Below are positions 2,110-37,560 of a stretch of 41,986 bases of DNA, in pieces; position 1 is the first letter of the stretch, and each line of letters begins with the position of its first letter. Below the pieces are notes generated by a model. That model saw only the letters and a list, made by a program, of their open reading frames with translations, was not told the origin of the DNA and ran no database searches. This DNA is from an uncultured Bacteroidales bacterium. GTDB taxonomy: Bacteria > Bacteroidota > Bacteroidia > Bacteroidales > UBA932. Location: positions 1 through 41,986 of the forward strand of contig CASFSL010000008.1 of the NCBI GenBank assembly GCA_949297365.1, given 5' to 3'. A program made the position numbers and the translations under genes.

Positions 2110-2405
2110 GCTCCTCCTATCCCGACCTTCTGCGGGCATTCCCCATCCGCTTCCACCACAACGGCAGCAAATCATCCGATTCCCTGCCGTTGCGGAACTG
2201 CATTTTCCCCGGCACCCCTGCTACAGCCCTTCTGTGCGGCATCCCTTCTTCGTCCTCCTACCACAACGGCAGCAAAACCCGCGATTCTCTGCCGTTGCGG
2301 AACAGCATCTTTCTCGCCACCCCTACCACAGCCCTTCTGAGCGGCATCCCTGCTTCATTTCCCTACCACAACGGCAGCATTTCCTGCGATTCTCTGCCGT
2401 TGCGG
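2110..2405. repeat. REP-like array A1: three tandem ~105-bp units
   Basis: Three palindromes have left arms CCACAACGGCAG at 2156-2167, 2261-2272 and 2366-2377, and right arms CTGCCGTTGCGG at 2184-2195, 2289-2300 and 2394-2405. Left-arm starts are exactly 105 bp apart. Arms match at 11 of 12 positions and enclose a 16-nt loop close to CAAAACCCGCGATTCT. The spacers between palindromes are also repeated: CACCCCT, then CCTTCTGNGCGGCATCCC. A similar spacer core precedes the first palindrome. There is no convincing gene here; the small ORFs crossing the array follow its periodicity. Confidence 0.88.
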
Positions 2406-2422
2406 CAAGCCCACTAAGCCCC

Positions 2423-3379
2423 CTATCCCTTTTTCTTATACGGCAGGGCAAGACACCTGCACACCTGCGCCTCTGTGGCATTGAAATTTTCCATAAGCCA
2501 TTTCGCCGTCTCTTTCTTTTCATCCTCAGTCAGATGCCAGTAACTTTTCCGCCTATACCGATTTATGATATCCGTGTCAATTATCCGGCACAGTTCCATA
2601 TCCGAGACAGCCTCCTCCCTATACCAGTGCTTGCTCTTCCGCTCGAATGCCTCAACTTCCTCCCGGGACATCCACGGCTCTATAGACCCCAGTGTAACAG
2701 GCTCATCATCTGTACCATCCTGCTTCTGCTGCTGTTTCCATTCCTCATAGTCGCGCCTGTGAAGATTATATTGAAATGCATTGTATGTACCGAATATCGT
2801 TTCAACTGCCTTGTACTCCACAAATGACGCCGGGTCGATACTTCCCCGGTCATCCAGTCGAAGCAGGTCCGTCAATGGCTTGCTGCGCCTGAGCAGTTTC
2901 CTGGCAAGGGTCTCATGCACCCGCTCTTTTTGTGTCAGAACCGTTCCGGATCCACATCCGGCCTTTCCGACCGCACTGCCAAAGTACAGGCCCGCGGTAC
3001 TGTACGGATAACTGAAAGGATTCACGCATACCTGATGATGCACGGGATTTTTCAGAACATAGCTGATTGCTGCGGCCTTATGTTCTATGCCGCGAAGTTC
3101 TAGACTGAAGAAATTCTTCTCTCCCAAAGGCCCTTTCCGATGATATTTCTTGTTGAAAGTACTTGTGTACGAATGCCTGAGCCGCCTCGAGAACTCAGGC
3201 AGGTTATCAGTTTCGATAATCTGATGCGCATGAGTGGACATCAACGCGTACGCGAAAATACCCGCGTTCATGGTCTCCGATATCTGCGCGATCCTGCACA
3301 GAAGCCGGCAAAAATCTTCATCGTCCCGGCAAAGCACCTCTCCATGAGAAGTGTAGCAATAGTGATACGGTGCTCTCAT
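2423..3379 (-). CDS. REP-associated tyrosine transposase A (Y1/HUH family)
   Basis: A 318-residue protein with an N-terminal Y1_Tnp (IS200-like) domain. The HUH metal-binding motif is STHAH (His50, His52) and the likely catalytic tyrosine is Tyr107 in AAISYVLKNPVHHQV, the arrangement of RAYT proteins. Such enzymes nick and join single-stranded DNA at REP hairpins. About 190 residues follow the Y1 domain, longer than classical enterobacterial RAYTs. They include DYEEW (middle) and a C-terminal SDMELCRIID plus helix-turn-helix-like end that is shared with the second RAYT in the window. The start ATG (3377-3379) has no Shine-Dalgarno sequence; TATCTTTA at 3428-3435 (minus) is a weak -7 candidate. 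Activity is inferred from intact motifs only. Confidence 0.88.
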   Translation of the reverse strand: MRAPYHYCYTSHGEVLCRDDEDFCRLLCRIAQISETMNAGIFAYALMSTHAHQIIETDNLPEFSRRLRHSYTSTFNKKYHRKGPLGEKNFFSLELRGIEHKAAAISYVLKNPVHHQVCVNPFSYPYSTAGLYFGSAVGKAGCGSGTVLTQKERVHETLARKLLRRSKPLTDLLRLDDRGSIDPASFVEYKAVETIFGTYNAFQYNLHRRDYEEWKQQQKQDGTDDEPVTLGSIEPWMSREEVEAFERKSKHWYREEAVSDMELCRIIDTDIINRYRRKSYWHLTEDEKKETAKWLMENFNATEAQVCRCLALPYKKKG

Positions 3380-3538
3380 TTTATTATGTTTAAGGATTTG
3401 TACGCTAAGTACTGCAGGGACGTGACGTAAAGATACTGTATTATTCCGGATTATCCCGGAAAATGTTATCGGGCAGATAAAATATTTTTACCGAAAGTGC
3501 AATTGGTCAGGCTAAGTCCCTTCCACAATCATAGCCCC

Positions 3539-3688
3539 TTCCACAACGGCAGTGAATCACGGGTTTTGCTGCCGTTGTGGAAAGGAGGTAGAAGGACAAT
3601 GCCGCCCAGAAGGCCTGCAGAGAGGGGTGGAGCATGAACGGTGGTGCCACAACGGCACCTATTCGCGGGTTTTGCTGCCGTTGTGGAA
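3539..3688. repeat. REP-like array A2: two units, inverted relative to A1
   Basis: Palindromes at 3541-3580 (perfect 12-bp arms, extended by TT/AA to 14) and 3647-3686 (the left arm diverges after 11 bases). Their starts are 106 bp apart. Read on the minus strand they give the same arm and loop sequence as array A1 (CAAAACCCG in the loop), so orientation is reversed. The spacer, also read on minus, carries CACCCCT and CCTTCTGGGCGGCAT as in A1. A fragment (CCCTTCCACAA) at about 3518-3527 may be a degenerate extra copy. The 350-bp gap between RAYT A and exonuclease III holds nothing else clear apart from a small TTCCGG/CCGGAA hairpin at 3444-3461. Confidence 0.87.
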
Positions 3689-3731
3689 AAAGAAAGATGC
3701 CAGGAGAGAGAGGCCCGGTGAGTGAGCTGTG

Positions 3732-4487
3732 TCAGATGTCGAGGGTGAGTTCGACGGGGCAATGGTCGGAGCCGAATATCTCGTTGTGGATGGCGGCACC
3801 GAGGAGCCTGGGCTGCAGGCGGTTGGATACGAGGAAATAGTCAATGCGCCACCCGGCGTTCTTCTCGCGGGCCTTGAAACGGTAGGACCACCAGGAGTAG
3901 GCGCCCTCGGTGTCGGGATAGAAATGGCGGAAGGTATCGGTGAATCCGGCGGCGAGCAGGTCGGAGAACTTGCCGCGCTCCTGGTCGGTGAATCCGGCGT
4001 TCATCCGGTTGGTCTTCGGGTTCTTCAAGTCGATTTCCTTGTGGGCCACATTCAGGTCGCCGCAGACGATGACGGGCTTGACGGCATCCAGACGCAGCAG
4101 GTAGGCGCGAAACTCATCCTCCCAGGTCATGCGGTAGTCCAGCCGCCGCAGCTCATCCTGCGAGTTGGGCGTATAGACCGTTACCAGATAGAAATCCGGC
4201 ATCTCGAGGGTGATGACGCGGCCCTCGGTATCGTGCTCCTCCAGCCCGAGTCCGTAAGTAACCGACAACGGCTCATGGCGCGAGAATATCGCAGTCCCCG
4301 AGTAGCCCTTCTTCTGAGCGTAGTTCCAGTACGAGCGGTAGCCCTCGAAGGCCATGTCCAGCTGTCCCTCCTGCAGCTTGGTCTCCTGCAGGCAGAAAAA
4401 GTCCGCGTTCAGTGCCAGGAAAGAGTCCTCGAAACCCTTGCCGCAGCAGGCCCTCAGGCCATTCACGTTCCATGAGATGAATTTCAT
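3732..4487 (-). CDS. xth: Exodeoxyribonuclease III
   Basis: A 251-residue AP endonuclease / 3'-5' exonuclease of the ExoIII (xth/exoA) family acting in base-excision repair. The full motif set is present: [10 protein letters not shown] at the start, QETKLQ (metal-binding Glu), GDLNVAH (catalytic Asp/Asn), the [12 protein letters not shown] loop and SDHCPV at the C-terminus (Asp-His pair). The frame is open further upstream to 4574, overlapping sufB, but family alignment sets the start at MKFISWN, ATG 4485-4487. It lies 31 bp after sufB on the same strand and could share its transcript. Confidence 0.96.
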
Positions 4488-4518
4488 ATCCTGTATTATT
4501 CTTGATTTAAAACTAAGA

Positions 4519-5955
<1,437 letters not shown>

Positions 5956-6016
5956 ATTGTCCTTGCCTTCTGCAAAAGTCAGACCGCAAAGATGAGGATT
6001 TTTCCGTTATCTTTTG

Positions 6017-6051
6017 CCTTGACCGACCGATTTTCGGAATGTCAGTCAAGG
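6017..6051. other. Hairpin over the tlpA-like stop codon
   Basis: CCTTGAC at 6017-6023 pairs with GTCAAGG at 6045-6051, with an inner CCGA/TCGG stem at 6027-6037. It spans the end of the TlpA-like gene and precedes sufB. It lacks a T-run on the minus strand, so a transcript-stabilising or weak terminating hairpin is possible but unproven. Confidence 0.35.
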
Positions 6052-7262
6052 TGCTGCTGAAGATATGCCTTGACGGAAGCGATATCCTTGACTTTCTCGA
6101 CTATCCTGCCGTCACTGTCTATCAGGAATATACCTCCGCCTCCGCCGTCAATACCGTAAAGTTCCCAGATACCCTCTGCCCTATCCAGATCATAAAGCTG
6201 AATCCAGGGATAACCGTCGGTTTCTATGGCCTTATGCAAATCGTCGAGAGAATTGAACTCCCCGGCCACGCCTATGACTGTAAAACCTTTATCCTTATAT
6301 TGCTCATAGACCGGTATCAGTTCTATTGAGTGTCGTCTGCACGGCAGGCACCATGATGCCCAGCAGTCCAGCACGGCTATCCGGCCTTCAATCAGTTCCG
6401 AAAGCGAATATCTCTCACCGTCCAGAGCCAGAGCACTGAAATCCGGAGCCGGCATCCCGGGACGGGTCCGTTCCATTGACGCCAGGAGTCTGTCCATACT
6501 GTTGACCGAACCGTTTCCCGGATATTTTTTACGGTACCTGTCAAGCAGGTCAAGTAAAAAAGTATCGACAGAGTCAGCTCCTCCCTGCATAAACATCTGA
6601 ATCTGCGAAGATAGTAGCGTTTGAAGTTCTGTCAGTCCGGCTAAAGTCAGGTGTGCGCTCATCCGGTCCCTCCTCCACCGCTCATAATCGGATACAGCTG
6701 TAATACTGTCATAAACAGCATCGAGACGTTCATTCATAGCTATTACGACAGCCTCATTCTCCGAGCCTTCCTCAGGCCAGCCTCCGTGTGCGGATATCCA
6801 TTTGTCTACATCATAGCTCAGTCTGTTGTAAGGTTCGTATATTCTATACCACTCATTTCTGTAAAGATACAGTTCCTCATTGTCACTGCTTCCGGTCACT
6901 GCAGCACAGATGTCGCCATACTTGCTGGTGAAATGGAATTTTACGGGAACTTTGTCCGAAATAAAAGGAAATGTATAAAATGTATTGTCGGCGAAATCCG
7001 GCTCAAAGAACATCTCGTATTTTACGGCCGACGAGTCCTTGAAAGATATGCTGAATGCGCCCTTGTCAAGATAGGCATAAGCGACCGGCTCGTCAAAGCG
7101 GATATCGGCACCGTCCCTGTAAATGAGCACCAGCGAGCTGTCTGGATAGAAGTCCGCACCCTCGCCGCTGACGTTGACAGTATACACCTTAGATCTTTCG
7201 CAGGAAACAGCCATGAGCACAACTGCCGCCATGACCGACAATAACCGAATAGTCCTTTTCAT
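6042..7262 (-). CDS. TlpA/ResA-like thioredoxin-fold lipoprotein
   Basis: A 406-residue predicted lipoprotein: signal peptide with lipobox MAVSC (Cys21), a long N-terminal region of the type found in Bacteroidetes TlpA-like disulfide reductases (DUF4369-like, uncertain), and a C-terminal thioredoxin domain. The active site is WCLPC (Cys305, Cys308) in LDCWASWCLPC. Such proteins sit in the periplasm or at the inner face of the outer membrane and handle thiol-disulfide exchange. Oddly, the loop that normally holds the conserved cis-proline reads YGIDGGGGGIFLID, with glycines instead of proline. Base composition is more AT-rich than the neighbours. The start is ATG 7260-7262, directly abutting a tandem repeat that carries its promoter elements. 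Confidence 0.85.
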   Translation of the reverse strand: MKRTIRLLSVMAAVVLMAVSCERSKVYTVNVSGEGADFYPDSSLVLIYRDGADIRFDEPVAYAYLDKGAFSISFKDSSAVKYEMFFEPDFADNTFYTFPFISDKVPVKFHFTSKYGDICAAVTGSSDNEELYLYRNEWYRIYEPYNRLSYDVDKWISAHGGWPEEGSENEAVVIAMNERLDAVYDSITAVSDYERWRRDRMSAHLTLAGLTELQTLLSSQIQMFMQGGADSVDTFLLDLLDRYRKKYPGNGSVNSMDRLLASMERTRPGMPAPDFSALALDGERYSLSELIEGRIAVLDCWASWCLPCRRHSIELIPVYEQYKDKGFTVIGVAGEFNSLDDLHKAIETDGYPWIQLYDLDRAEGIWELYGIDGGGGGIFLIDSDGRIVEKVKDIASVKAYLQQHLD

Positions 7263-7330
7263 AGAAAATGAATTTTAAATTTTGCCAAATATAGAAAATG
7301 AATTTTAAATTTTGCCAAATATAGAAAATT
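7261..7330 (-). repeat. 30-bp exact tandem duplication carrying tlpA-like promoter elements
   Basis: Bases 7261-7290 and 7291-7320 are identical and a partial third copy begins at 7321. On the minus strand each junction gives TATATTTG (CAAATATA on plus at 7286-7293 and 7316-7323), the Bacteroidetes -7 element. The TTTG of the distal copy lies 22 bp upstream of the proximal -7 element and could act as its -33 box. The first unit includes part of the gene's ATG. Confidence 0.8.
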
Positions 7331-7359
7331 TTTGCCCGGCTTCTGTTAAAAAAAAGATG

Positions 7360-7367
7360 TATCTTTG
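7360..7367 (+). promoter_or_regulatory. -7 element for the thiL-like/fucosidase pair
   Basis: TATCTTTG fits TAnnTTTG and lies 18 bp before the ATG at 7386. A TTTG at 7331-7334 is 25 bp upstream, longer than the usual spacing of about 19-21, so the -33 box is uncertain. Confidence 0.55.
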
Positions 7368-7385
7368 GCTTTCAATCTGAAAAAT

Positions 7386-8390
7386 ATGGCTACGGAAATA
7401 TCTTCTATAGGCAAGGAGGCTCTTTTGTCACGGCTTTTTGAAGGCAGCGGCTGGATAAATGAGCGGGGCTGCGCGTTCTCCGGCGACGGGGATTTCAGCA
7501 CGGTTCACAAGGTATTCATGGAAAAGGTGGATTTCGACCTGACGTACAATCCTCTGCGGCATCTCGGGCACAAGCTCGCCCTGAACGTCATCGGAGAGCT
7601 GTACGCCCGTTTCAGTTCTCCTGTGGGACTGGACGTTACGGTGGCCCTGTCAAACCGTTTCTCAGTTGAGGACGTACAGGATCTCTGGGAGGGCATCTCC
7701 GCTGCAGCCAAGGAACACGGCGCGGGGCATCTGGCCCTGGACTTGATTCCCTCGGCGGCCGGAATGGTGGTGAGCATCGCGGCCTGGGGCTCCACCGCTA
7801 AGGAGGTGACTGAAAAGCGGAAGAAGGCTCAGTCAAAGGATCTTCTGGTGCTCAGCGGAGATCTCGGGGCGGCATACATGGGACTGCACGTGCTGGAAAG
7901 GGAGAAAGCCGCTTTTCAGGGCACTCCCGCCGGTGCGGCTCCCAAGCAGCCTGATCTGTCCCAGTACAAATACATCGTGGGCGAATACCTCAGTCCGTAT
8001 CTCAAGCCGGATATCCCCGGACGTTTCTCGGAGGCCGGAATCATCCCCTGCGGAGGGTATTTCGTCAGCCGCGGACTCGGTGACGCCGCCAAGCGCATTG
8101 CCGCCGATACGGGCCTCGGAGTCAAGATTTACATAGGCAGGATCCCCATTGCCTCCAAGACATTCGAGATGGCACAGGAACTGAACCTTGACCCCGTCAC
8201 GGCTGCTGTCAACGGCGGGGACGACTACCGCCTTCTGTACATTGTCCCCCTGGAGTTCCACGAGACGCTGCGCCGCGACTTCCAGGACTGGGACATCATC
8301 GGTCACCTCGCCCATTCAGATGTAGGCGAAGTCCTGGTCACTCCCGAAGGAGCCGAAATCGGCATCCACGCCCAGGGCTACGAACAATAA
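7386..8390 (+). CDS. ThiL-like / AIR synthase-related kinase
   Basis: A 334-residue protein of the PurM/ThiL ATP-binding superfamily, most like thiamine-monophosphate kinase, which makes thiamine diphosphate from ThMP and ATP. Seen in the sequence: FSGDGDFST near residue 30 (ThiL normally has GDDAAV), VDFDLTYNPLRHLGHKLALNVIGE (the HF-dl-y-p-iG-KalavN pattern), and VNGGDDYRLLYIVP near the C-terminus, equivalent to the HGGEDYELL motif. The altered N-terminal metal-binding motif makes exact activity uncertain. The start is ATG 7386; the TTG at 7365 lies inside the -7 element and is rejected. The fucosidase follows after 15 bp. No other thiamine gene is near. Confidence 0.72.
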   Translation: MATEISSIGKEALLSRLFEGSGWINERGCAFSGDGDFSTVHKVFMEKVDFDLTYNPLRHLGHKLALNVIGELYARFSSPVGLDVTVALSNRFSVEDVQDLWEGISAAAKEHGAGHLALDLIPSAAGMVVSIAAWGSTAKEVTEKRKKAQSKDLLVLSGDLGAAYMGLHVLEREKAAFQGTPAGAAPKQPDLSQYKYIVGEYLSPYLKPDIPGRFSEAGIIPCGGYFVSRGLGDAAKRIAADTGLGVKIYIGRIPIASKTFEMAQELNLDPVTAAVNGGDDYRLLYIVPLEFHETLRRDFQDWDIIGHLAHSDVGEVLVTPEGAEIGIHAQGYEQ

Positions 8391-8405
8391 TTTTACTGAG
8401 ATACA

Positions 8406-9752: not shown

Positions 9753-9760
9753 TGATGATT

Positions 9761-9808
9761 TTTTACAGAAATGGTAAAACCGCTGCAGTTTTTACCATTT
9801 CCGTAAAA
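9761..9808. terminator. Terminator-like hairpin after the fucosidase
   Basis: TTTTACAGAAATGGTAAAA (9761-9779) pairs with 9790-9808 at 18 of 19 positions around a 10-nt loop. It begins eight bases after the fucosidase stop. The stem is AT-rich and flanked by A/T runs, so it could end transcription in either direction. Confidence 0.65.
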
Positions 9809-9832
9809 TAATGATACTCAGCAGCAAAAATA

Positions 9833-9864
9833 TTGTCGAAGCTGTCGGATTTTCCATATATTTG
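9833..9864 (+). promoter_or_regulatory. Promoter of the Rpn-family gene
   Basis: TTG at 9833-9835 and TATATTTG at 9857-9864, 21 bp apart, match the Bacteroidetes -33/-7 pattern. The predicted start near 9871 leaves a leader of about 22 nt before the ATG at 9893. Confidence 0.7.
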
Positions 9865-9892
9865 CTTCCGTTAACCAATAAATTTTCTAAAG

Positions 9893-10804: not shown

Positions 10805-10809
10805 ATTTC

Positions 10810-10842: not shown

Positions 10843-10845
10843 ATG

Positions 10846-14721: not shown

Positions 14722-16859
14722 ATTATGAAATTGACTTTAATCATGAAATTGGTGCCCGGCATCGGGTAGCACTGGACTACCTCGTACTGCTGGTTGAGTA
14801 TGTTGTTTATCAGAAGCGTGGCCCTCAGTTCCCAGCCGTTGAACTCAAACGACTTGGTCAGGGATACATCGTGGGTATACCAGGGCTGGGAATAATTCTC
14901 CGGGATGTTGGCGACGGACTCATACCGTTCTCCGGTGTAGATGAAGCTGTAGTTGAGCGACCAGCTGCGCAGGGCCGCACCCACAGTCACCGAACAGCTG
15001 TGCAGGGGTATGTAAGGCACCTGTCCGCCGTACCACTCCGATGAGGGATCCGACAGGTCCCGGGCCCGCTGAAAAGTGTAGCTCACCCTCGGAGACACAT
15101 CCACCGGCCCGAAGCGGAAATAGCCCTGGGCCGCGATGTCCGCACCCAGTATCTCCACATACCCGAGATTCATCATCGTCCAGCAGAACTGGTTGGAGGT
15201 GGGCATGGCCACTATCTTATTGTCTATCTGGTTGAAATAAAAGTCACCCTGCACGTCCACGCCTCTGAACCATCCGCTGCGGCGTATCAGCGACCAGGTG
15301 GCCCCGAAATCGTACTGGACGGTCTCCTCCGGCTCCAGCCATTTAGGCACCACAGTGGTATAATACATATCGTTAAATGTGGGCATACGGTAGGACTTTT
15401 TGTAAAACGCCCTGAGTTCCAGGTCTATGTTGCGGAACGGCTTCCATGAGGCAATGACCGACGGTGACAGATTGTGCCTGTCATCCACCCTGCCGCTGCC
15501 CGAGCGCAGCACGTCGTGGACGAATATGTACAGAAGCGAGGCCGACAGCTTGAAGCCCCCGAATTCAAAGGCCGTCGCTGCCGCTCCGTATGCCGAGTAG
15601 CGCATGGGATAAACGAAGTCGCGCATATCGGCATCCAGACTGTTCCACTGAAAGTCCGTCGCCAGGGACAGTTCCCACCACTTGAAAGGCTTGAACCGAT
15701 GCGCAGCGGAAAAATACGCCTCCTGCTGGTAGTAACGGTTGTCCACATACATAGTAGTCACATCCAGACGCGGATCTGAAAGGAAATGCAGATAGTCGTA
15801 TGCGTATTTGCCGTTGAGCAGCAGGGAATACCACGAAGTGAAATCCTTCTTGAAAGAGCCCTGTACGAAAAGATTGTCATCCCACTGCCGGTCCTGATTC
15901 TTGACTTCTCCTTTGACTTCTCTAACTACGGCTCCGGGATAGCCGCGTTCGGAGTCGTAGAAATAGGCCTTGGCTTTCCACCAGCCGTTCTCGATGTCTC
16001 CGAAGAGGGCCACCTCGGCCCGGGTCATGCGGATATCCCCGTTCTGCCTGATACCTGTCGTGTCGTAACCGTTCTGCCTGATACCTGTCGTGTCGTAACC
16101 GTTCTGCTTGGCATACGTGAACTTATACCGGCCCGAGGTATAGAGGAACTCCGTACTGGCCGAGAGCGATACACGGTCCGATATCCTGTGCTCCCATAGC
16201 ACTGACGGATTGACAGTTGCAAAAGAGCCGCCCTTTAGGCCGAAGTTCCAGTTGTTGCGCTTGCCGTCCTCGAAGCGGGGCCTCTTGGTCTGCAAATAGA
16301 CCGCCGTCGCCGAGGCGTAGTCCTTGGCTGACTGGAGTGTCGAGCTTTTCTGACCGTTGTACAGTGATACTGACTCCATATTGTCTAAGGAGAACCGCCC
16401 CAGGTCCACTATTCCGTTCTGCGCATTGCCCAGCTCCACACCGTCGTAGAACACTCCCACATGCTGGCTGCCTAGGCTGCGGACATTTATCGTCTTGAGC
16501 CCGCCGATACCGCCGTAGTCCTTGATCTGTACCCCGGAAAAATACCTGATCGCATCGGCTATGGAATGTGTGCCCAGAGTGCGCAGCTTCTCTCCCGAGA
16601 GCATCTGCACCGGCACTATCTCCTGCGAGGTGCGGGTCGCCACCACCATCAGTTCGTCCAGAGCATAGACAGTATCCGCTTCGGGAATCGTATCTAACGC
16701 ACATTCAGGCATATCGTATATGGCAGCAGCCTGTACTCTCTCAGCCGGGCACACCTGCGCTCCGTACGCTACAGGACCGGCCAACGACAGAAATACCGTC
16801 AGGGCCGACACCGTCAGCACTAAGGAAAACATCATTCTATCTATGAATCGCACTGCCAT
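14718..16859 (-). CDS. btuB: TonB-dependent cobalamin receptor BtuB
   Basis: A 713-residue outer-membrane receptor. A signal peptide (about 1-34, ending AYGA) is followed by a plug domain with a TonB-box-like start (DTVYALDELMVVATR), LRTLGTHSIADAIRYFSGVQIKDYGG and GLKTINVRSLGSQHVGVFYDG. Beta-strands then lead to a C-terminal FMIKVNFII ending in an aromatic/hydrophobic strand. Substrate assignment rests on the cobalamin riboswitch upstream and BtuG downstream. An extracellular or periplasmic loop near residues 250-275 contains an exact in-frame duplication of ten residues (QNGYDTTGIR). The start may be ATG 16859 or the nearby internal Met-Met (residues 9-10); 16859 is used. Confidence 0.92.
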   Translation of the reverse strand: MAVRFIDRMMFSLVLTVSALTVFLSLAGPVAYGAQVCPAERVQAAAIYDMPECALDTIPEADTVYALDELMVVATRTSQEIVPVQMLSGEKLRTLGTHSIADAIRYFSGVQIKDYGGIGGLKTINVRSLGSQHVGVFYDGVELGNAQNGIVDLGRFSLDNMESVSLYNGQKSSTLQSAKDYASATAVYLQTKRPRFEDGKRNNWNFGLKGGSFATVNPSVLWEHRISDRVSLSASTEFLYTSGRYKFTYAKQNGYDTTGIRQNGYDTTGIRQNGDIRMTRAEVALFGDIENGWWKAKAYFYDSERGYPGAVVREVKGEVKNQDRQWDDNLFVQGSFKKDFTSWYSLLLNGKYAYDYLHFLSDPRLDVTTMYVDNRYYQQEAYFSAAHRFKPFKWWELSLATDFQWNSLDADMRDFVYPMRYSAYGAAATAFEFGGFKLSASLLYIFVHDVLRSGSGRVDDRHNLSPSVIASWKPFRNIDLELRAFYKKSYRMPTFNDMYYTTVVPKWLEPEETVQYDFGATWSLIRRSGWFRGVDVQGDFYFNQIDNKIVAMPTSNQFCWTMMNLGYVEILGADIAAQGYFRFGPVDVSPRVSYTFQRARDLSDPSSEWYGGQVPYIPLHSCSVTVGAALRSWSLNYSFIYTGERYESVANIPENYSQPWYTHDVSLTKSFEFNGWELRATLLINNILNQQYEVVQCYPMPGTNFMIKVNFII
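16041..16110 (-). repeat. 30-bp in-frame tandem duplication within btuB
   Basis: Bases 16041-16070 and 16071-16100 are identical, and a third partial copy covers 16101-16110. Each unit encodes QNGYDTTGIR, so the receptor loop can gain or lose ten residues without a frameshift. Confidence 0.9.
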
Positions 16860-16949
16860 ATTCTTTTCCTAAAATGGACAGCAGCTTGAAGGGCAGAAAC
16901 GCCGCGAAGACCTCTAGAGTCCGGAGCCTAAACACCCGTAGGCCGCTGA

Positions 16950-17130
16950 TCCGTGTGCAAGGCAGGTCTTCTGACTTGTTCCGCTCCGGACGCCTTCCCG
17001 AATCCCGGCAGACGGTCTATCTCCCAGGGCATCAGTGGCAAAAGTGCCGGAACATCATTGGAACTCACAGCAGCGGGAACTGTCCGGGACTCTCACCCGG
17101 TTCCCTTTTAATCCTATACGGAACCGTTGC
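16950..17130 (-). ncRNA. Cobalamin riboswitch
   Basis: On the minus strand the order of conserved elements fits the B12 riboswitch: GGTTCC then AAAAGGGAACCGGGTGAGAGT (written here as AAAAGGGAACC plus GGTGAGAGTCCCGG), ACAGTTCCCGCTGCTGTGA, the B12 box GCCACTG, GGGAAGGC and GTCAGAAGACCTGCC. It lies in the leader about 90 bp before btuB and should repress the whole btuB-btuG-DUF4465-PKD operon when adenosylcobalamin or another corrinoid is abundant. The remaining 90 bp before btuB would hold the expression platform. Limits are approximate. Confidence 0.95.
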
Positions 17131-17135
17131 GACCG

Positions 17136-17166
17136 CAAATATATGCATTTTTCAATATCCATACAA
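17136..17166 (-). promoter_or_regulatory. Promoter of the cobalamin operon
   Basis: On minus, TTG (17166-17164) and TATATTTG (17143-17136) are 20 bp apart, a good Bacteroidetes promoter. Transcription would begin near 17130, just where the riboswitch fold begins. Confidence 0.75.
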
Positions 17167-28308: not shown

Positions 28309-28325
28309 ACTTCATTCCTCCTTCT

Positions 28326-31541: not shown

Positions 31542-31553
31542 CGCAGGCGGGGA

Positions 31554-32567
31554 TTATTTTACAACATTCAGTCTGACTCCGTCCACGAGCTTGGCCTGAC
31601 CGGTGGTGACTATCGGGTCGCCCACTTTAAGGCTGTCGCTGGATATCTCTATGGTCTGGTCGTGACGCTCGCCGATCTCCACGAAGACCCTCTTGGCGAC
31701 TCCACCGTCGTCCACAAATACGTACCGGTTGTTGGAGCCTATAAGTCTGAGCACCGACTGATAGGGCACCACCAGAGCCTCAGTCCGGCCCAGGTCGAGC
31801 ACCGTACTCACATACATACCAGGACGTATCAACTCGCTGCGGTTGGGAATCCTCAGCTTGAGGGTAAATGTATGCGAGGCCGGGTCAATGGTCGGATATA
31901 CTATCTCTATCGTAGCCGGGAACACCTTGTCGGGATAGATGTCGGAGTAGACATTGACCTTCATGCCCTTCTTGACCAGGGGAAAATAAGTCTCGGGGAC
32001 ATTGACATAGGCTTTCAGTTCATTAATCTGGGTCAGACGGAGAATGGGCTGCGCTCCGGCGTACAGCTCCCCGTCCTCGTAGCTCTTGGCCGAGATGACT
32101 CCGTCGTACTGGGCGAGCACAAATGTGTTCTCCTCCAGAAAGCGCAGGGACTCGGCGGTCTGGTCGAAGCTCAGTTTGGTCTGGTCGTATGTCTGCTGCG
32201 AGATGGCCTCGCTTTCCAGCAGCATCCGGACGCGGTTCATCTCTATCTGCAGATTGGCGTATGCCAGACGGGTGGTATTGAGCTGGTTCTGGTCCATCCG
32301 CACCAGAGTGTCGCCCTTACGGACCCTGTCGCCCACCTCCACGTATATTTTCTCAATAATACCCGTAAGCGAGGGCGAGATGTTCATCTCCTCGTAACCC
32401 TGAAGGGTCGTCGAAAGCTCAATCTGCCGCGACACCTCCTGATAGGCCAGCGGAGTGGTACGCACCTGCTCCACCCTGTCCTGGGAGACTTCCTCAGTGT
32501 TGGCTCCGCAGCCGCTCAGCAGCGCGGCGGCGGTGATAATTGCGATTGCCTTTATTTTCATATCCAT
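31554..32567 (-). CDS. RND periplasmic adaptor (membrane fusion lipoprotein)
   Basis: A 337-residue HlyD/AcrA-type adaptor with lipobox LLSGC (Cys20). The barrel-sandwich hybrid halves are visible: ISPSLTGIIEKIYVEVGDRVRKGDTLVRMD and, after the coiled-coil hairpin (about 95-145), FVLAQYDGVISAKSYEDGELY. The beta-barrel (RPGMYVSTVLDLGR) and membrane-proximal domains follow. It bridges the RND pump and the TolC-like channel. ATG 32567 is used; MKIKAI two codons later is possible. It starts 3 bp after the channel gene stop. Confidence 0.93.
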   Translation of the reverse strand: MDMKIKAIAIITAAALLSGCGANTEEVSQDRVEQVRTTPLAYQEVSRQIELSTTLQGYEEMNISPSLTGIIEKIYVEVGDRVRKGDTLVRMDQNQLNTTRLAYANLQIEMNRVRMLLESEAISQQTYDQTKLSFDQTAESLRFLEENTFVLAQYDGVISAKSYEDGELYAGAQPILRLTQINELKAYVNVPETYFPLVKKGMKVNVYSDIYPDKVFPATIEIVYPTIDPASHTFTLKLRIPNRSELIRPGMYVSTVLDLGRTEALVVPYQSVLRLIGSNNRYVFVDDGGVAKRVFVEIGERHDQTIEISSDSLKVGDPIVTTGQAKLVDGVRLNVVK

Positions 32568-32570
32568 AAT

Positions 32571-33947
32571 TTATTTCTGTTCCTGTATTGATTGTCCGTA
32601 AGTATTCTTGTTGAGAAGCTTCTCCAGCTCGATCTGGGCCGTCACGTAGTCCAGGGCGGCCTGCACATAGGTGCTCTGGGCAGTGATGAGGGTTGTGGCG
32701 GCGTTGGTCACGTCCAGACTGGAAGCGTGACCGAACTCGTATTTCTTGCCGATATTATCAAATACGGCCTGGGAGACCTCTACGTTCTTCACCTGTGTCT
32801 GATAACGCTCGTATGCGGAGGAGAGGTTGTACTTGAGCTGACGGTGCTGGATGTTCAGGGCCATCTTGGTGTTCTCCAAGGTGTTGAGCTGCTTCTGATA
32901 ATCCAGTTTGGCCTTCTGGAAAGAAGTATAGTTGCGGCCCGAGGAGAATATGGGGATGGACAGAGTAAGGCCGATCATGTTCGGGGGAGTCATGTTCATG
33001 GTCATCTCGTCGGAGAAATACTTCCTGCCCGTGTACTGGTAGAATGCGCTCAAGGTAGGTCCGTAGGCCCATCCCGCAAGGTTTTTCTGCTTCCTGTACA
33101 GCTCGGTGCTCTGCAGGGCCAGCTGATAGGAGAAATTGTTCTCCAGGATAAAATCATCATAGAGCAGGTCCAGCGAATGTTCCACGTCCATCAGATCGTC
33201 CAGGGTCTGGGTCAGGACTATCTCCTTGTCGAAACCGACGTTCATCTGCAGGCGCATGGAGTTGTAGATCATCTCCAGTCCGCGCTCGGCCTCGTTGATG
33301 GAAGTTTCCAGAGTGGAGACCTGTACCAGAATCTGGTCTGCGTCCACCTGCTCGGCCACTCCTGCGTCCACCGACTTCTGGGACAGCTCGTGCAGCTTGC
33401 GCACGGTACCGAGGTTGCGCCGGAGCAGTTCCACCGTCTGCGTACTGACCAAAGCGGAAAAATACAGCAGCCGCACCTGCTCGGCCACCTCCTGCTGCGA
33501 CTGACGGTGCGAGACATCCGCCATCTCTATGGACAGCTTGCCGATGAGCGCGCTTATGATCTGGGCTCCGCTCACCGACATGGCGGCATTGACACCTATT
33601 GAACCGTAAGGCGGCATGGCTATAGCCAGTCCGGTCTCACCGAACTCCATCTCATATCCCATGTAGTTGGAATAGTCCAACGTTCCATTAACTTGCGGAA
33701 GCATGGTCGCAATCGCTCCCCAGCGGTCGGCCTCGGCCTGACGCACGGCCAGCGACGAGTTCTGCAGATCCCAGTTGTGCTCCAGCGCGTAAGTCATCGC
33801 CTCGTCCAGCGTGAAATACATCACCGAGGTATCCGCATCCGGCACTGACGGAGCCTGAGCGGCAGCCTTAAACGGAACAGCCCCGGCAATCAGGAAGAGA
33901 GCCGAGGCACAGCATACAACTACCGCTGTTTCTAATTGTTTTCTCAT
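32571..33947 (-). CDS. TolC-family outer-membrane efflux protein
   Basis: A 458-residue OEP protein with a signal peptide (about 1-31, ending KAAAQ). Two long helical repeats of the TolC barrel are evident: LDEAMTYALEHNWDLQNS and YTSFQKAKLDYQKQLNTLENT, with ASSLDVTNAATTLITAQSTYVQAALDYVTAQIELEKLLN near the C-terminus (family signature, shortened). It forms the exit duct of the RND system. Its ATG overlaps the regulator's stop by 1 bp (TAATG). Confidence 0.94.
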   Translation of the reverse strand: MRKQLETAVVVCCASALFLIAGAVPFKAAAQAPSVPDADTSVMYFTLDEAMTYALEHNWDLQNSSLAVRQAEADRWGAIATMLPQVNGTLDYSNYMGYEMEFGETGLAIAMPPYGSIGVNAAMSVSGAQIISALIGKLSIEMADVSHRQSQQEVAEQVRLLYFSALVSTQTVELLRRNLGTVRKLHELSQKSVDAGVAEQVDADQILVQVSTLETSINEAERGLEMIYNSMRLQMNVGFDKEIVLTQTLDDLMDVEHSLDLLYDDFILENNFSYQLALQSTELYRKQKNLAGWAYGPTLSAFYQYTGRKYFSDEMTMNMTPPNMIGLTLSIPIFSSGRNYTSFQKAKLDYQKQLNTLENTKMALNIQHRQLKYNLSSAYERYQTQVKNVEVSQAVFDNIGKKYEFGHASSLDVTNAATTLITAQSTYVQAALDYVTAQIELEKLLNKNTYGQSIQEQK

Positions 33948-34570
33948 TATCGTAACAGTGATTTATTATTTTTCAGATATTCGTCAATATACTCCCGGCC
34001 CTTCTCCGTCGCAATACCTCTTATAAGGAAAAGCATCAGGCAGTCCGAGCCACGGTCGTGCTTGATCTCCAGATAATTGCGCACCGCCCTGTCCGTAACC
34101 GCCACAGAAAGCTCGAAGAGCTGCAGGGACAACTGATGCGCGTCCAGGATATCCGTTATGAACAGATCCTCCTTCTGCCCCTGCCTAATTACTCTCTCCA
34201 GCAGCTCGCAGTGCCATCTGTTCACATCCTGCACCACATTCATGAACACCTCCGGATAATACCGCTTGACCTCCGTAAAGAAGTCATAATAGAAACTCAT
34301 GCGCTTCTCGTCCTTGTTCTCCAGCGAGCGCATGAACCACTCGAGAACATTGTCCGCCCCTGCGAGTTCCTCTTCCATCCGGACCATATTGCCCTTGTGC
34401 ATCAGAAGGATACATTCCCTCAACAGGCCTGCCTTGTCGTGAAACATCTCGTACAGCGTGCGCTTGGACATACCGTTGGCCGAAGCCACATCATCCATAG
34501 TCAGCGACTTGCAGCCACGCTCCAAAAAAAGTGCGGAGGTATTTCTCAGTATTTGCTCCCTGTTCGTCAT
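33947..34570 (-). CDS. TetR/AcrR-family regulator of the efflux operon
   Basis: A 207-residue regulator with an N-terminal TetR helix-turn-helix: REQILRNTSALFLERGCKSLTMDDVASANGMSKRTLYEMFHDKAGLL (read here in pieces: LFLERGCKSLTMDD, ANGMSKRTLYEMF). The helical C-terminal half is the ligand-binding and dimer domain. As first gene of the efflux operon it probably represses its own promoter and responds to a pump substrate. Start ATG 34568-34570, only about 5 nt from the predicted transcription start. Confidence 0.92.
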   Translation of the reverse strand: MTNREQILRNTSALFLERGCKSLTMDDVASANGMSKRTLYEMFHDKAGLLRECILLMHKGNMVRMEEELAGADNVLEWFMRSLENKDEKRMSFYYDFFTEVKRYYPEVFMNVVQDVNRWHCELLERVIRQGQKEDLFITDILDAHQLSLQLFELSVAVTDRAVRNYLEIKHDRGSDCLMLFLIRGIATEKGREYIDEYLKNNKSLLR

Positions 34571-34580
34571 AATCAGGATG

Positions 34581-34611
34581 CAAAACTAAAAAAACTTCCG
34601 CAGTTTCCAAA
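34581..34611 (-). promoter_or_regulatory. Promoter of the TetR-RND efflux operon
   Basis: On minus, TTTG (34611-34608) and TAGTTTTG (34588-34581) are 19 bp apart, a near-ideal Bacteroidetes promoter. Predicted start is near 34575, giving an almost leaderless mRNA. The divergent kbl promoter is 50 bp away; a TetR operator is expected here but no clear palindrome was found. Confidence 0.72.
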
Positions 34612-34640
34612 TTTTTATCACAACTGAACGGCTTATTTAC

Positions 34641-34648
34641 TAACTTTG
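34641..34648 (+). promoter_or_regulatory. -7 element for kbl
   Basis: TAACTTTG matches TAnnTTTG, 24 bp before the kbl ATG. No good -33 TTG was found. Confidence 0.55.
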
Positions 34649-34672
34649 CGTCCAAACTAAATACACAGCATT

Positions 34673-35863
34673 ATGTACAAAGATTTTCAAGCCTATCTTC
34701 AGAACGAGCTGAACAGCATCAAGGAAGCCGGTCTGTACAAGGAGGAGCGCGTAATCGTCACTCCCCAGGGTCCTGAGATCACACTCCAGGACGGCACCAA
34801 AGCTCTTAACTTCTGCGCCAACAACTATCTCGGCCTCGCCGACAGCAAGGAGCTTGTGAACGCAGCCAAAGAGGCCCTTGACACTCACGGCTACGGTATG
34901 GCCAGCGTGCGCTTCATCTGCGGTACCGGTGACCTGCAGAAGACCCTCGAGGCCAAGATCGCAGAGTTCTTCGGCACTGAGGACACCATCCTCTACGCCG
35001 CATGCTTCGATGCCAACGGCGGTGTGTTCGAGCCTCTTCTGAACGAGCAGGACGCCATCATATCCGACTCTCTCAACCACGCCTCCATCATCGACGGCGT
35101 GCGTCTGTGCAAGGCCAAGAGATACCGTTACGCCAACGCTGACATGGCCGAGCTGGAGAAATGCCTCCAGGAAGCCCAGGCCCAGCGTCACCGCATCATC
35201 GTTACCGACGGCGTATTCTCCATGGACGGCAACGTATGTCCTCTGGACAAGATCCACGCCCTCGCCGAGAAGTACAACGCCATGGTTATGGTCGATGAGT
35301 CGCACTCAGCCGGTGTCGTAGGAAAGACCGGACGCGGTGTGACCGAGCGTTACAACCTCCGCGGCCAGATCGAGATCATCACAGGTACTCTCGGAAAGGC
35401 ATTCGGCGGCTCCGTAGGCGGATTCACCACCGGTAAGAAGGAGATCATCGCCATGCTGCGCCAGAGGTCAAGGCCGTACCTCTTCTCCAACTCGATTCCT
35501 CCCATGATCGCAGCCGCAGGTATCCGCATGTTTGACATGATGAAGGAGTCCAACGAGCTTCAGGACCGTCTGCACGAGAACACCGACTACTTCATAAGCA
35601 GGATGAAAGCCGCCGGCTTCGACATCAAGCCCACCGAGTCAGCTATCTGCGCTGTCATGCTGTACGACGCCAAGCTGTCCCAGGAGATGGCCGCGCGCCT
35701 GCAGGACGAAGGCATCTTCGTAACCGGATTCTACTACCCTGTAGTGCCTAAAGACCAGGCCCGTATCCGTGTACAGGTATCCGCCGGCCACAAGAAGGAG
35801 CACCTTGACAGATGCGTCGCAGCCTTCACCAAGATCGGCAAGGAACTCGGCGTCCTGAAATAG
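34673..35863 (+). CDS. kbl: Glycine C-acetyltransferase (2-amino-3-ketobutyrate CoA ligase)
   Basis: A 396-residue PLP enzyme of the alpha-oxoamine synthase family. It cleaves 2-amino-3-ketobutyrate with CoA to glycine and acetyl-CoA in threonine degradation. Motifs: FCANNYLGLA, GYGMASVRFICGT, DSLNHAS (His136 stacking on PLP), DESHSAG and TGTLGKAFGG with Lys242 as the PLP Schiff-base lysine (E. coli Kbl has Lys244). Length and the SVRFICGT motif favour Kbl over serine palmitoyltransferase, but Bacteroidetes also have SPT, so a sphingolipid role is a minor alternative. tdh, the usual partner, is not next to it. Codon use is strongly biased to C/G, suggesting high expression. An intrinsic terminator follows. 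Confidence 0.88.
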   Translation: MYKDFQAYLQNELNSIKEAGLYKEERVIVTPQGPEITLQDGTKALNFCANNYLGLADSKELVNAAKEALDTHGYGMASVRFICGTGDLQKTLEAKIAEFFGTEDTILYAACFDANGGVFEPLLNEQDAIISDSLNHASIIDGVRLCKAKRYRYANADMAELEKCLQEAQAQRHRIIVTDGVFSMDGNVCPLDKIHALAEKYNAMVMVDESHSAGVVGKTGRGVTERYNLRGQIEIITGTLGKAFGGSVGGFTTGKKEIIAMLRQRSRPYLFSNSIPPMIAAAGIRMFDMMKESNELQDRLHENTDYFISRMKAAGFDIKPTESAICAVMLYDAKLSQEMAARLQDEGIFVTGFYYPVVPKDQARIRVQVSAGHKKEHLDRCVAAFTKIGKELGVLK

Positions 35864-35894
35864 GCCCGCCCCGCTCCACAACACACACAACCAC

Positions 35895-35928
35895 AAAAGA
35901 CCGCGTCCTTTCCCGGACCCGGTCTTTT
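35895..35928 (+). terminator. Intrinsic terminator after kbl
   Basis: AAAAGACCG (35895-35903) pairs with CGGTCTTTT (35920-35928), with an inner GTCC/GGAC stem, and is followed by T's. It lies 32 bp after the kbl stop. Confidence 0.88.
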
Positions 35929-36040
35929 TCATTTCCCCTCCATTAGATTGCCGTTCCCGTTTTCTTCATATTTTCCGTCCTTTATCTGATTCCCGCCCAA
36001 TTTCCTCCCTAGCCTTCATCCCCCATCCCTTCTGCCATCG

Positions 36041-36384
36041 GAGAGTGTACCATTCCTCCACATTATCCGTACACCCTCGCCCATAGATTCTATACGCACC
36101 ACACTCATAAGCACTTCTCAGCAGCATACCCTACTCCTCCCCCACGAGAGTGTACCATTTTCCCATGCTTCACGTACACTCCCCATCTTGCCAGCCATCC
36201 ACAAGCCACTACAAACGGCACAGCATCCATTTCCCAAATAAGAGTGTACCATTTTCCCACCCTCGTGGTACACTCTCGTGGAAAGGGGAGATGTAAATGC
36301 CGACGAGAATGGGTTGCGGAGGCGACAAGACAGGATAGCATCTACGAGGGTGTACCGATATCTCGGGGAAATGGTACACTCCCG
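36041..36384. repeat. REP-like array B1: four GAGAGTGTAC palindromes
   Basis: Units: 36041-36079, 36146-36181, 36240-36278 and 36346-36383. Left arms are GAGAGTGTAC or close, right arms GTACACTCTC or close. Starts are 105, 94 and 106 bp apart. The first three share ACCATT(TTCCC) after the left arm; the fourth has it complemented before the right arm (GGGGAAATGGTAC), so it is inverted. Spacers carry a core such as ACTTCTCAGCAGCATACCC that resembles the spacer core of family A. The rest of the 546 bp between kbl and RAYT B holds only the kbl terminator and CT-rich sequence without a credible gene. Confidence 0.86.
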
Positions 36385-36409
36385 CATCATCAGTCTCCAC
36401 AAAACAAAA

Positions 36410-37336
36410 CTAAGAATATGGCAAACACCTCTCCAACTGCCCCTGCGATACCCGTAACGCATCTGCAAGGCTCTGGCGCACATCATCCACCTCGGAATGG
36501 GAAAACTGCACATAACTGACTTTTCCATAACGCGGTACACACTGATGGTCTATAATATCGCACAACTCAATATCCGAAACACGTTTCTCGTTGACCCAAT
36601 GCTGATTCTGCTTCAAAATCAACTGCACCTCACTATCCGGCAGAAAAGCCTCTACAGTTCCCAGCGTAACCGGCGGCAGACCATCGTCATCTTCCTCCTG
36701 CTCCCGCATCCATCGCTCATAGTCATTACGGTTAAGACCGAACAGAAAAGCGCGGTACGATCCGAAATAACCCTCTACCAAAACACTGTCTACCACATCG
36801 TCATATGAGATCATGCCGGTTGACCTCAAAACATCAACGTCATCGGGCAGATGATTTTTTATCCGGATAATATCCGACTTTTTCCTTCGAAGCACAGCTT
36901 CCGTTACGGGAGAAAAGGATTGTATTTTATTCTTAAAATACTGATTGACGGAAGAGAACGGATAGGAGTAAAGGTTTGCGCACACTTCGTGATGGTAGGG
37001 ATTGCGTATGACATAACTTATCGCGGCTGCGATATGACGCCGTCCTTCAAGCTTACTGCAGAAGAAAGCCTTGTCCCCCAATGCTCCCTTGCGCTTGTAA
37101 CGGTGATTGAACATCTGTGTATACGAAGTTCTTATCCGCATTACCAGATTGGACGGATCAGCACATACGGCAATCATGTGTACGTGCGTAGACATTATGG
37201 CATGAGCCAACAGACTGCTGCCAGTCTTGAACACAGCCTGTGCAATGCAGTTGAACATCATGCAGTAATCCTTATAACTTCGGCAAAGTACCTCATTGTG
37301 AGAGGTAAAACAGATATGATACAATCTCCTGCCCAT
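36410..37336 (-). CDS. REP-associated tyrosine transposase B (Y1/HUH family)
   Basis: A 308-residue homologue of RAYT A. The HUH motif is STHVH (His51, His53), and Tyr109 in AAISYVIRNPYHHEV is the likely catalytic residue. The 190-residue region after the Y1 domain is shared with RAYT A: FGSYRAFLFGLNRNDYERW and HWVNEKRVSDIELCDIID align with FGTYNAFQYNLHRRDYEEW and HWYREEAVSDMELCRIID, ending in a helix-turn-helix-like RVSQGQLERCL. Identity is only moderate, so the two are old paralogues. It has a near-ideal promoter and, unusually here, a strong Shine-Dalgarno sequence AAGGAGG 8 nt before ATG 37334-37336. Composition is more AT-rich than most neighbours. Confidence 0.88.
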   Translation of the reverse strand: MGRRLYHICFTSHNEVLCRSYKDYCMMFNCIAQAVFKTGSSLLAHAIMSTHVHMIAVCADPSNLVMRIRTSYTQMFNHRYKRKGALGDKAFFCSKLEGRRHIAAAISYVIRNPYHHEVCANLYSYPFSSVNQYFKNKIQSFSPVTEAVLRRKKSDIIRIKNHLPDDVDVLRSTGMISYDDVVDSVLVEGYFGSYRAFLFGLNRNDYERWMREQEEDDDGLPPVTLGTVEAFLPDSEVQLILKQNQHWVNEKRVSDIELCDIIDHQCVPRYGKVSYVQFSHSEVDDVRQSLADALRVSQGQLERCLPYS

Positions 37337-37344
37337 GTCTCTCT

Positions 37345-37351
37345 CCTCCTT
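37345..37351 (-). promoter_or_regulatory. Strong Shine-Dalgarno sequence of RAYT B
   Basis: On minus, AAGGAGG lies 8 nt upstream of the ATG. Most starts I examined in this window have no such element, as expected in Bacteroidetes, where the anti-SD is largely unused. Confidence 0.7.
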
Positions 37352-37375
37352 GTAATCATTTAACTAAAGTCTTTG

Positions 37376-37407
37376 CAAATATACTAAGAAGCCGAGAGGA
37401 GAACAAA
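37376..37407 (-). promoter_or_regulatory. Promoter of RAYT B
   Basis: On minus, TTTG (37407-37404) and TATATTTG (37383-37376) are 20 bp apart, a near-perfect Bacteroidetes promoter with a leader of about 33 nt. Confidence 0.75.
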
Positions 37408-37435
37408 TTTATTTGCTCTACGAAGTTTCACTTCG

Positions 37436-37560
37436 GAGAGTGTACCTTCTTTTCTGAAAAATAGTACACACTCCTAGTAAAAACATTCCTATATGGGGCA
37501 AATACCGCAAAATCCCTCGAAGAGTGTACTACTATCAAGCATCTGTGGTACACTCTCGCG
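37436..37560. repeat. REP-like array B2: two GAGAGTGTAC palindromes
   Basis: Units at 37436-37473 (arms GAGAGTGTAC / GTACACACTC, one extra base) and 37521-37558 (AGAGTGTAC / GTACACTCTCG). The first has AAAATAGTAC before its right arm, so it is oriented like the fourth unit of array B1. AAGCATCTA just after the second unit (about 37587) also occurs, as TAGCATCTA, just before the fourth unit of B1. The rest of the gap to the propeller gene is AT-rich and contains that gene's promoter. Confidence 0.8.

What the first reader, a model, noticed from the sequence alone, without database searches (positions are those of the whole stretch)
2110..37560. The two palindrome families share one spacer core
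Spacers in family A carry CCTTCTGNGCGGCATCCC and end in CATTTCCC or CTCCTTTCC. Family B spacers carry ACTTCTCAGCAGCATACCC (36110s), TTCTCGTCGGCATT (minus strand of about 36298-36312) and CATTTCCC (about 36228-36235). Both families also have periods near 105 bp. So the repeat is a composite of a variable hairpin and a conserved spacer of about 65 bp. That spacer is not explained by known REP or BIME structure and could be a second recognition site, a binding site for a host protein or part of an RNA.
Basis: seen in the sequence. Interest (0 to 1): 0.75.

Follow-up and report, generated by a model that had tools for sequence, protein, structure and literature searches.

The report
Shared core between transposase-linked DNA hairpins
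Several families of repeated DNA hairpins, each next to its own transposase-like gene in a gut bacterium, differ in the hairpin but share a short sequence between hairpins, which suggests that the working unit is two hairpins plus this core.

Summary
Both palindrome families flank their own RAYT-like Y1 transposase gene (39% identical) in a Candidatus Coprenecus genome, and their spacers share a core, roughly CTACAGGC-n-TTCTnnnCGGCAT, near the spacer's middle. With models trained without the tested family, spacers beat shuffles at p<=0.05 in A 22/25, B 6/7, F 9/13, but D only 2/11; real DNA near arrays, the fairer control, gives 2/30 to 4/30. A model of A spacers from other genomes, run on the window genome, gave 19 matches at E<=0.11. 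All 19 lie between two hairpins, one of them between hairpins of another family; no B spacer was reached (150 of 610 candidates scored). Family A units are mostly head-to-tail and 105 bp apart. No RNA structure was predicted in the spacer. The families with the clearest core belong to one RAYT clade, but a core outside it (families C, J) is not excluded. I read the unit as a RAYT-mobilised doublet, hairpin-core-hairpin, with the core as a second cis site for these RAYTs. That function is inferred; a host-protein site and a relic of descent remain open. New variant of the REP/RAYT kind.

The parts
2423..3379 (-). RAYT A, Y1/HUH transposase, 318 aa (HuH THAH, Y motif YVLKNP)
   Evidence: NF047646 E=5e-10, 39.4 bits, below the cut-off of 80; AlphaFold model mean pLDDT 84.2, best Foldseek match 4er8, RAYT bound to a REP hairpin, E=2.7e-5
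36410..37336 (-). RAYT B, 308 aa, 39% identical to RAYT A
2156..2195 (.). family A hairpin 1 (CCACAACGGCA..TGCCGTTGCGG)
2261..2300 (.). family A hairpin 2
2366..2405 (.). family A hairpin 3
3541..3580 (.). family A hairpin 4
3647..3686 (.). family A hairpin 5
2221..2244 (+). core in A spacer 2196-2260
   Evidence: model match E=1.9e-12
2326..2349 (+). core in A spacer 2301-2365
   Evidence: model match E=2.7e-7
3597..3620 (-). core in A spacer 3581-3646
   Evidence: model match E=7.3e-10
2125..2155 (+). half spacer at the outer left border of the RAYT A locus, beginning in mid-core (ACCTTCTGCGGGCAT)
   Evidence: comparison with G013; G013 carries other DNA there, so it is not a clean empty site
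36043..36076 (.). family B hairpin 1 (GAGTGTAC..GTACACCC)
36148..36181 (.). family B hairpin 2
36242..36275 (.). family B hairpin 3
36348..36381 (.). family B hairpin 4, inverted relative to 1-3 (read by eye)
37438..37473 (.). family B hairpin 5, degenerate
37522..37555 (.). family B hairpin 6
36106..36129 (+). B core, spacer 36077-36147
   Evidence: A HMM p=0.015 against shuffles; not reached at E<=5 in the genome scan
36295..36318 (-). B core, spacer 36276-36347
   Evidence: A HMM p=0.065 against shuffles
36200..36223 (+). weak B core in the shortened 60-bp spacer 36182-36241
   Evidence: A HMM p=0.114; ungapped matrix p=0.050

Best explanation
The arrays are non-autonomous mobile repeats of RAYTs. 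The unit is a mostly head-to-tail doublet: hairpin, about 65 bp with a central core, hairpin. Each RAYT recognises its own hairpin stem; the core, shared by related RAYT families, is a second cis site that these RAYTs use when they excise or join units. Arrays grow and shrink by whole units, and single hairpins are mostly leftovers. SHOWN: the shared core in families A, B and F and probably E, G and H; its place between two hairpins in the window genome; the near-constant spacing and head-to-tail order of family A; array-length differences at orthologous sites. INFERRED: binding or cleavage at the core, mobility by RAYT, dependence of the core on RAYT rather than host, and the origin of single hairpins.
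For: (1) Held-out HMMs, orientation chosen without the A core, against real-DNA controls: A 22/25 vs 2/30, B 6/7 vs 4/30, F 9/13 vs 2/30; E 2/3, G 1/1, H 2/2 vs 9/60 (one H spacer had itself been found by the core model, so 4/5 for E, G and H without it). (2) Genome scan with a model of 33 A spacers from other genomes: 19 matches at E<=0.11, all between two hairpins, 18 of family A and 1 of another family 106 bp apart; the twentieth, E=4.15, has no inverted repeat near it. Outer flanks of arrays: 4 of 211 with core score >=15 against 2 of 211 farther out. (3) Tree of 28 RAYTs, midpoint root: the 12 rows of families A, B, D, E, F, G and H lie in one clade of 13 (support 100/99), the extra row being family I. 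(4) Family A spacing exactly 105 in 97 of 113 neighbour pairs before filtering, although 75 non-redundant 65-bp spacers average 50% pairwise identity. (5) Neighbouring A hairpins, judged by their loops: direct 91, inverted 7, tie 3 of 101. (6) Orthologous sites: L006 site 2 hairpins against 1 in G010, G013 and G009; L012 site 4 against 1, 1 and 0; L008 site 3 against 6 in G014 and none in G013 and G009. (7) Mixed arrays: 38 of 218 neighbour pairs join different families.
Against: No binding, cleavage or transposition data exist. Family D, inside the clade, is not above control in the leak-free test (2/11 vs 3/30), although it was with the A-only model (6/13) and (8/11, where training spacers had been oriented with the A core). 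Family I shows no core (0/3). Families C (2/2, p=0.029 against control) and J (2/5, p=0.2) outside the clade may carry one, which would untie the core from the clade. Most array ends resemble spacers only within about 10 nt of the outer hairpin, so the core is not the usual outer border. The hairpin's strand asymmetry is not fixed relative to the core: 88 AC against 49 GT hairpin slots on the core-forward strand. The C-terminal helices of the RAYT are less conserved between clade families than the HUH domain (0.37 against 0.58), so I cannot say which part would read the core. No B spacer was reached in the genome scan.
Confidence: 0.42

Rival explanations
1. Relic of descent: all families come from one ancestral doublet; stems changed with their RAYTs, and the core is what has not yet decayed, without a function of its own.
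For: The families with the clearest core are related RAYTs; tandem units are near-copies, so copying preserves length; mixed arrays would allow exchange.
Against: In 75 A spacers the core columns carry more information than the rest of the same spacers (spacers were oriented by the core), and the 105-bp spacing persists at 50% mean identity; both point to constraint.
Confidence: 0.25
2. The core binds a host protein as dsDNA (nucleoid protein or gyrase, as for some E. coli BIMEs), and a unit length of about ten helical turns sets the phase between sites.
For: REPs bind IHF and gyrase (PMC6006769, passages). A possible core in family C, outside the clade, would fit.
Against: In the window genome no match at E<=0.11 lay outside hairpin doublets; families J (2/5), K (0/1) and L (0/1) are not above control (L compared by eye with 9/60), on few spacers.
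Confidence: 0.18
3. The arrays act as RNA (terminators or mRNA stabilisers) and the spacer is part of that RNA.
For: The hairpins could fold in RNA; 53 of 65 classified arrays lie between tandem or convergent genes.
Against: No consensus structure in the spacers; no Rfam match over the arrays; 12 of 65 arrays are between divergent genes, and the mix resembles other gaps of the same loci, 30/13/6 (naive ORF calls).
Confidence: 0.05
4. The core is mainly an insertion target or joint: RAYTs join new units into cores of existing arrays, which makes mixed arrays and keeps the sequence in common.
For: 38 of 218 neighbour pairs are mixed; in 6 junctions with a recognisable A-type part (at least 20 columns and 11 bits, a criterion set afterwards) of 19 junctions with an A hairpin, that part ends at columns 29-49, core 28-51; the RAYT A locus border lies in mid-core.
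Against: Few independent junctions; detection is best in the core; in L172 the break can be read at the core's left edge; no insertion into a clean empty site was resolved.
Confidence: 0.2

Closest known systems
REPINs (REP doublets, Pseudomonas fluorescens; PMC3116915, passages)
   Same: Doublet rather than single REP as the unit; preferred spacings (71, 110 bp); each family beside its own RAYT; tandem clusters; singlets seen as remnants; clusters of unrelated REPINs.
   Different: 93% of REPIN doublets are inverted and fold through the spacer into one hairpin. Here family A partners are mostly head-to-tail, no folding is predicted in the spacer, and a sequence core is shared across families with unrelated stems.
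BIMEs of E. coli and TnpAREP (PMC8266576, passages)
   Same: Hairpins plus linker in tandem copies, beside a Y1 transposase of the 4er8 fold.
   Different: BIMEs pair a REP with an inverted REP and carry GTAG at the foot; here GT[AG]G lies within 6 nt of the foot in 16 of 448 flanks, near my own chance estimate of 2-3%.
TnpAY1 subclass 2.6 / RAYT group 5 of Bacteroidetes with atypical structures (PMC6006769, passages)
   Same: Bacteroidetes; hairpins without GT[AG]G; copies elsewhere in the genome.
   Different: HuH-Y distance 57 in RAYT A and B against a median of 82; Y motif YVLKNP/YVIRNP against YIH[QN]NP; 318 and 308 aa against a median of 179.
IS200/IS605 ends (IS608, ISDra2)
   Same: HUH fold; as I recall, both end hairpins lie on one strand there, that is in direct order.
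   Different: In the doublets no transposase gene lies between the two hairpins; cleavage sites are unknown.

Membership tests
REP/RAYT systems (REPtrons) | Y1/HUH transposase with HuH and Tyr motifs | tested here: met
   HxH and YxxxNP in RAYT A and B; 4er8 and IS608 by fold; NCBIfam match below cut-off
REP/RAYT systems (REPtrons) | gene flanked by its own palindrome family, copies dispersed in the genome | tested here: met
REP/RAYT systems (REPtrons) | GT[AG]G at the hairpin foot | tested here: not met
   family A: 16 of 448 flanks; also lacking in subclass 2.6 (PMC6006769, passages)
REPIN / BIME | two REPs in inverted orientation | tested here: not met
   family A: direct 91, inverted 7, tie 3 of 101 pairs; one inverted B pair in the window, read by eye; other families not counted
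REPIN / BIME | doublet folds into one long hairpin through the spacer | tested here: inconclusive
   no pairs within spacers by RNAalifold; whole doublets were not folded
TnpAY1 subclass 2.6 | HuH-Y distance about 82 and YIH[QN]NP | tested here: not met
   57 residues, YVLKNP/YVIRNP
Known RNA families | match to an Rfam model over the arrays | tested here: not met
   gathering scores
REP/RAYT systems (REPtrons) | RAYT binds and cleaves its hairpin as ssDNA | not testable with these tools
   needs purified protein

The most novel reading that the evidence does not exclude
The core is a common currency of a group of RAYTs: a RAYT reads its private hairpin and the shared core, so related RAYTs can join, swap or mobilise one another's units. 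This would explain mixed arrays and the A hairpins in genomes where no RAYT A was found: 11 of the 15 genomes with A hairpins, all incomplete assemblies.
Probability: 0.18. Interest if true: 0.75.

Novelty: new variant of a known kind. Interest (0 to 1): 0.5.

Why it matters
REP elements are usually defined by the palindrome. Here the palindrome is the variable part, and a sequence between two palindromes is what several families have in common. If the core is read by the RAYT, the system has two separable specificities, one private and one shared, which can be tested with purified protein and short DNAs, and which would help explain how new REP families arise and why families mix in one array.

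Tried and rejected
Tried and led nowhere or weakened: an ungapped core matrix handled family D badly (1-base shift); hmmscan of the C-terminal ends against Pfam gave nothing; a C-terminal helix-turn-helix as reader of the core is not supported by conservation. Flank comparison rejected the core as the ordinary outer border of arrays. No RNA structure was found in the spacer. The RAYT A locus in G013 is not a clean empty site. The helical-phase idea rests on seven related families and is a hint only. A coding role of the 105-bp units (35 codons) was not tested.

Mended on checking: one search used B, D and F spacers that had been oriented with the A core; I repeated it without that help. A and F stayed, B rose from 3/7 to 6/7, D fell from 8/11 to 2/11, and C and J went to 2/2 and 2/5. 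I therefore lowered the best explanation from 0.50 to 0.42 and the novel case from 0.20 to 0.18, raised the host-protein rival from 0.12 to 0.18, and set interest at 0.50 instead of 0.55. In some searches I read the G013 and G009 loci at the L006 site on the wrong strand; mend that.

Selections: family names A-M are mine. One search kept 115 of 137 arrays after an arm filter. The 75 spacers and the 33 aligned ones (34 were listed, one left out) were chosen at exactly 105-bp spacing, the 33 also for core score, so their equal length and gap-free alignment are partly by choice. Searches used 20 and 25 of the 75. In one search, 50 of 115 arrays could not be classified, and 67 of 115 overlapped a naive ORF call.
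Full report
WHERE. The window is contig C8 of a 2.28-Mb genome in 51 contigs. The genus is taken as Candidatus Coprenecus: contig C80 of the congener G002 has the length and match coordinates of DVGV01000017.1, Candidatus Coprenecus merdigallinarum. Two RAYT-like genes lie in the window, 2423-3379 (A) and 36410-37336 (B), 39% identical. Each is flanked by its own palindrome family. A third RAYT with another palindrome (family C) is on contig C48.

THE OBSERVATION. By exact patterns, A hairpins occur at 13 places in the genome and B at 6. The four pairs of neighbouring exact A hairpins outside the window are 105, 105, 105 and 210 bp apart. In the A-family loci fetched from this and related genomes, 97 of 113 neighbour distances are exactly 105, 6 are 104, 3 are 106, 1 is 103; the other 6 were seen before filtering and are probably loose pattern hits.

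THE CORE. Of 99 A spacers at 105-bp spacing, 91 have their best core match at column 25 of 65. The 75 non-redundant ones have the consensus CTACAGGCCTTCTGGGCGGCATTG at columns 25-48, the most conserved block of the spacer, while whole spacers average 50% pairwise identity. Consensus strings of the matching region in other families: D CTACAGGcgGCTCTCGgGGCGG, F TCAGAGGccnCTCTCGccGGCCC, B tCAtAAnCcCTTCTCGaCgGnCaT.

STATISTICS. First run, 300 dinucleotide shuffles per spacer: p<=0.05 in A 18/20, D 8/11, F 9/13, B 3/7, E 1/3, G 1/1, H 1/1, I 0/3, J 1/5, L 0/1, C 1/1; real stretches 250 bp outside arrays 6/52. Training spacers of B, D and F had been oriented with the A core, a leak. Repeat without it: A 22/25, B 6/7, F 9/13, D 2/11, E 2/3, G 1/1, H 2/2, I 0/3, J 2/5, K 0/1, L 0/1, C 2/2. 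Controls with the same models were 2/30 (A), 4/30 (B), 3/30 (D), 2/30 (F) and 9/60 (all families). The controls exceed 5%, so shuffles alone flatter the case. Against controls: A p=4e-10, F 6e-5, B 6e-4, E, G and H together 5/6 p=0.001, C p=0.029, J 0.2, D 0.41. One H spacer had been found by the core model itself. The A-only HMM gave B 3/10, D 6/13, F 6/11, E 2/3 and none of 1, 1 and 3 for I, H and J. So the core is well supported in A, F and B, probable in E, G and H, uncertain in D, and open in C and J.

BETWEEN HAIRPINS. A sequence-only model of 33 A spacers from other genomes gave 20 matches in the window genome at E<=5; the tool scored 150 of 610 candidates. The 19 at E<=0.11 all lie between two hairpins. 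Eighteen are between A hairpins, several of them variants missed by the exact pattern. One (C49:20819-20873, E=0.046) lies between hairpins of a different family, GGAAAGTG..CACTTTCC, 106 bp apart. The twentieth (E=4.15) has no inverted repeat near it. No B spacer was reached. Outer flanks of A arrays carry the core no more often than stretches farther out (4 against 2 of 211 at score >=15; 12 against 14 at >=14), and similarity to the array's own spacers fades about 10 nt outside the hairpin. Longer stretches (20 nt or more) occur at 4 of 60 right and 8 of 60 left ends.

ORIENTATION. Judged by loop similarity, neighbouring A hairpins are direct in 91, inverted in 7 and tied in 3 of 101 pairs. 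[quoted passage not shown] Near the foot, 172 of 224 A hairpins have a G.T pair on one strand and A.C on the other, which suggests that one strand is recognised; its orientation is not fixed relative to the core.

RELATION TO RAYTs. In a tree of 28 RAYTs (midpoint root, with warnings about long branches) families A, B, D, E, F, G and H plus I form one clade, support 100/99. Families C, J and K of the same genus and L and M of other Bacteroidales lie outside. Their spacers are few (C 2, J 5, K 1, L 1, M none scored), and C and J may carry a weak core, so restriction to the clade is not established. This is the main gap between the RAYT-site and the host-protein readings.

DYNAMICS. Orthologous sites differ in hairpin number: L006 site 2 against 1 in G010, G013 and G009; L012 site 4 against 1 in G013, 1 in G008, 0 in G014; L008 site 3 against 6 in G014 and none in G013 and G009. 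In G013 and G009 the left flank of the L010 array and the right flank of the L008 array are neighbours without an array, 37 bp apart, whereas in the window genome they lie on different contigs, each next to an A array; this looks like a rearrangement or a large insertion at A arrays. Of 218 neighbouring hairpin pairs, 38 join different families. Of 23 A/D/F mixed junctions analysed, 19 involve an A hairpin; in 6 of these an A-type part is recognisable and ends at columns 29-49, core 28-51. This is suggestive only. A hairpins occur in 15 of 19 genomes, but a RAYT A (94% identity or more) was found in 4.

PROTEIN. The AlphaFold model of RAYT A (mean pLDDT 84.2) has an N-terminal HUH domain closest to 4er8, a RAYT bound to a REP hairpin, and to IS608 TnpA, and a C-terminal helical part without a Pfam match. 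Between clade families the HUH domain averages 58% identity and the C-terminal helices 37%, so I do not assign the core to the latter.

WHAT IS NOT SHOWN. Binding, cleavage and movement are inferred. No RNA structure is predicted in the spacer. Gene context, from naive ORF calls, was 34 tandem, 19 convergent and 12 divergent for 65 of 115 arrays, against 30, 13 and 6 for other gaps in the same loci.

LITERATURE. Library searches and passages of five papers (PMC6006769, PMC8266576, PMC3116915, PMC3733652, PMC12306157) gave no description of one spacer core shared by REP families of different RAYTs. The library holds part of the literature only, and the RAYT classification paper of Bertels et al. 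2017 is not held.

Noticed in passing
window 16944-17144 (-): Cobalamin riboswitch, 95.4 bits.
   Followed up: no
window 7261-7329 and 16039-16107: Two 30-bp tandem repeats of 2.3 copies each with 100% matches.
   Followed up: no
L028 / G000:C48:7535-8407: Third RAYT with its own palindrome TACAGAC..GTCTGTA, two copies 218 bp apart, about twice the usual period; its spacer may carry a weak core.
   Followed up: partly
G011 and ten other genomes of the genus: A hairpins are present (59 + 50 pattern matches on the two strands in G011) although no RAYT A was found there.
   Followed up: no
L010 and L008 (G000:C30 and C23) against L280 (G013) and L281 (G009): Left flank of one A array and right flank of another are adjacent, 37 bp apart and without an array, in G013 and G009: a possible rearrangement or large insertion at A arrays in the window genome.
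   Followed up: partly
L272 (G014:C3), about 1385-1510: A long GC-rich inverted repeat, arms about 27 bp by eye, sits at the site where G000 has an A array.
   Followed up: no
L012 2535-2581: A stretch of about 40 bp of the query matches ten other places in G009, G010 and G013; nature not checked.
   Followed up: no
hairpin loops of families A, B, D, E and F: Loops look alike between families (TTTCCCGC-like) although the stems differ; not tested statistically.
   Followed up: no
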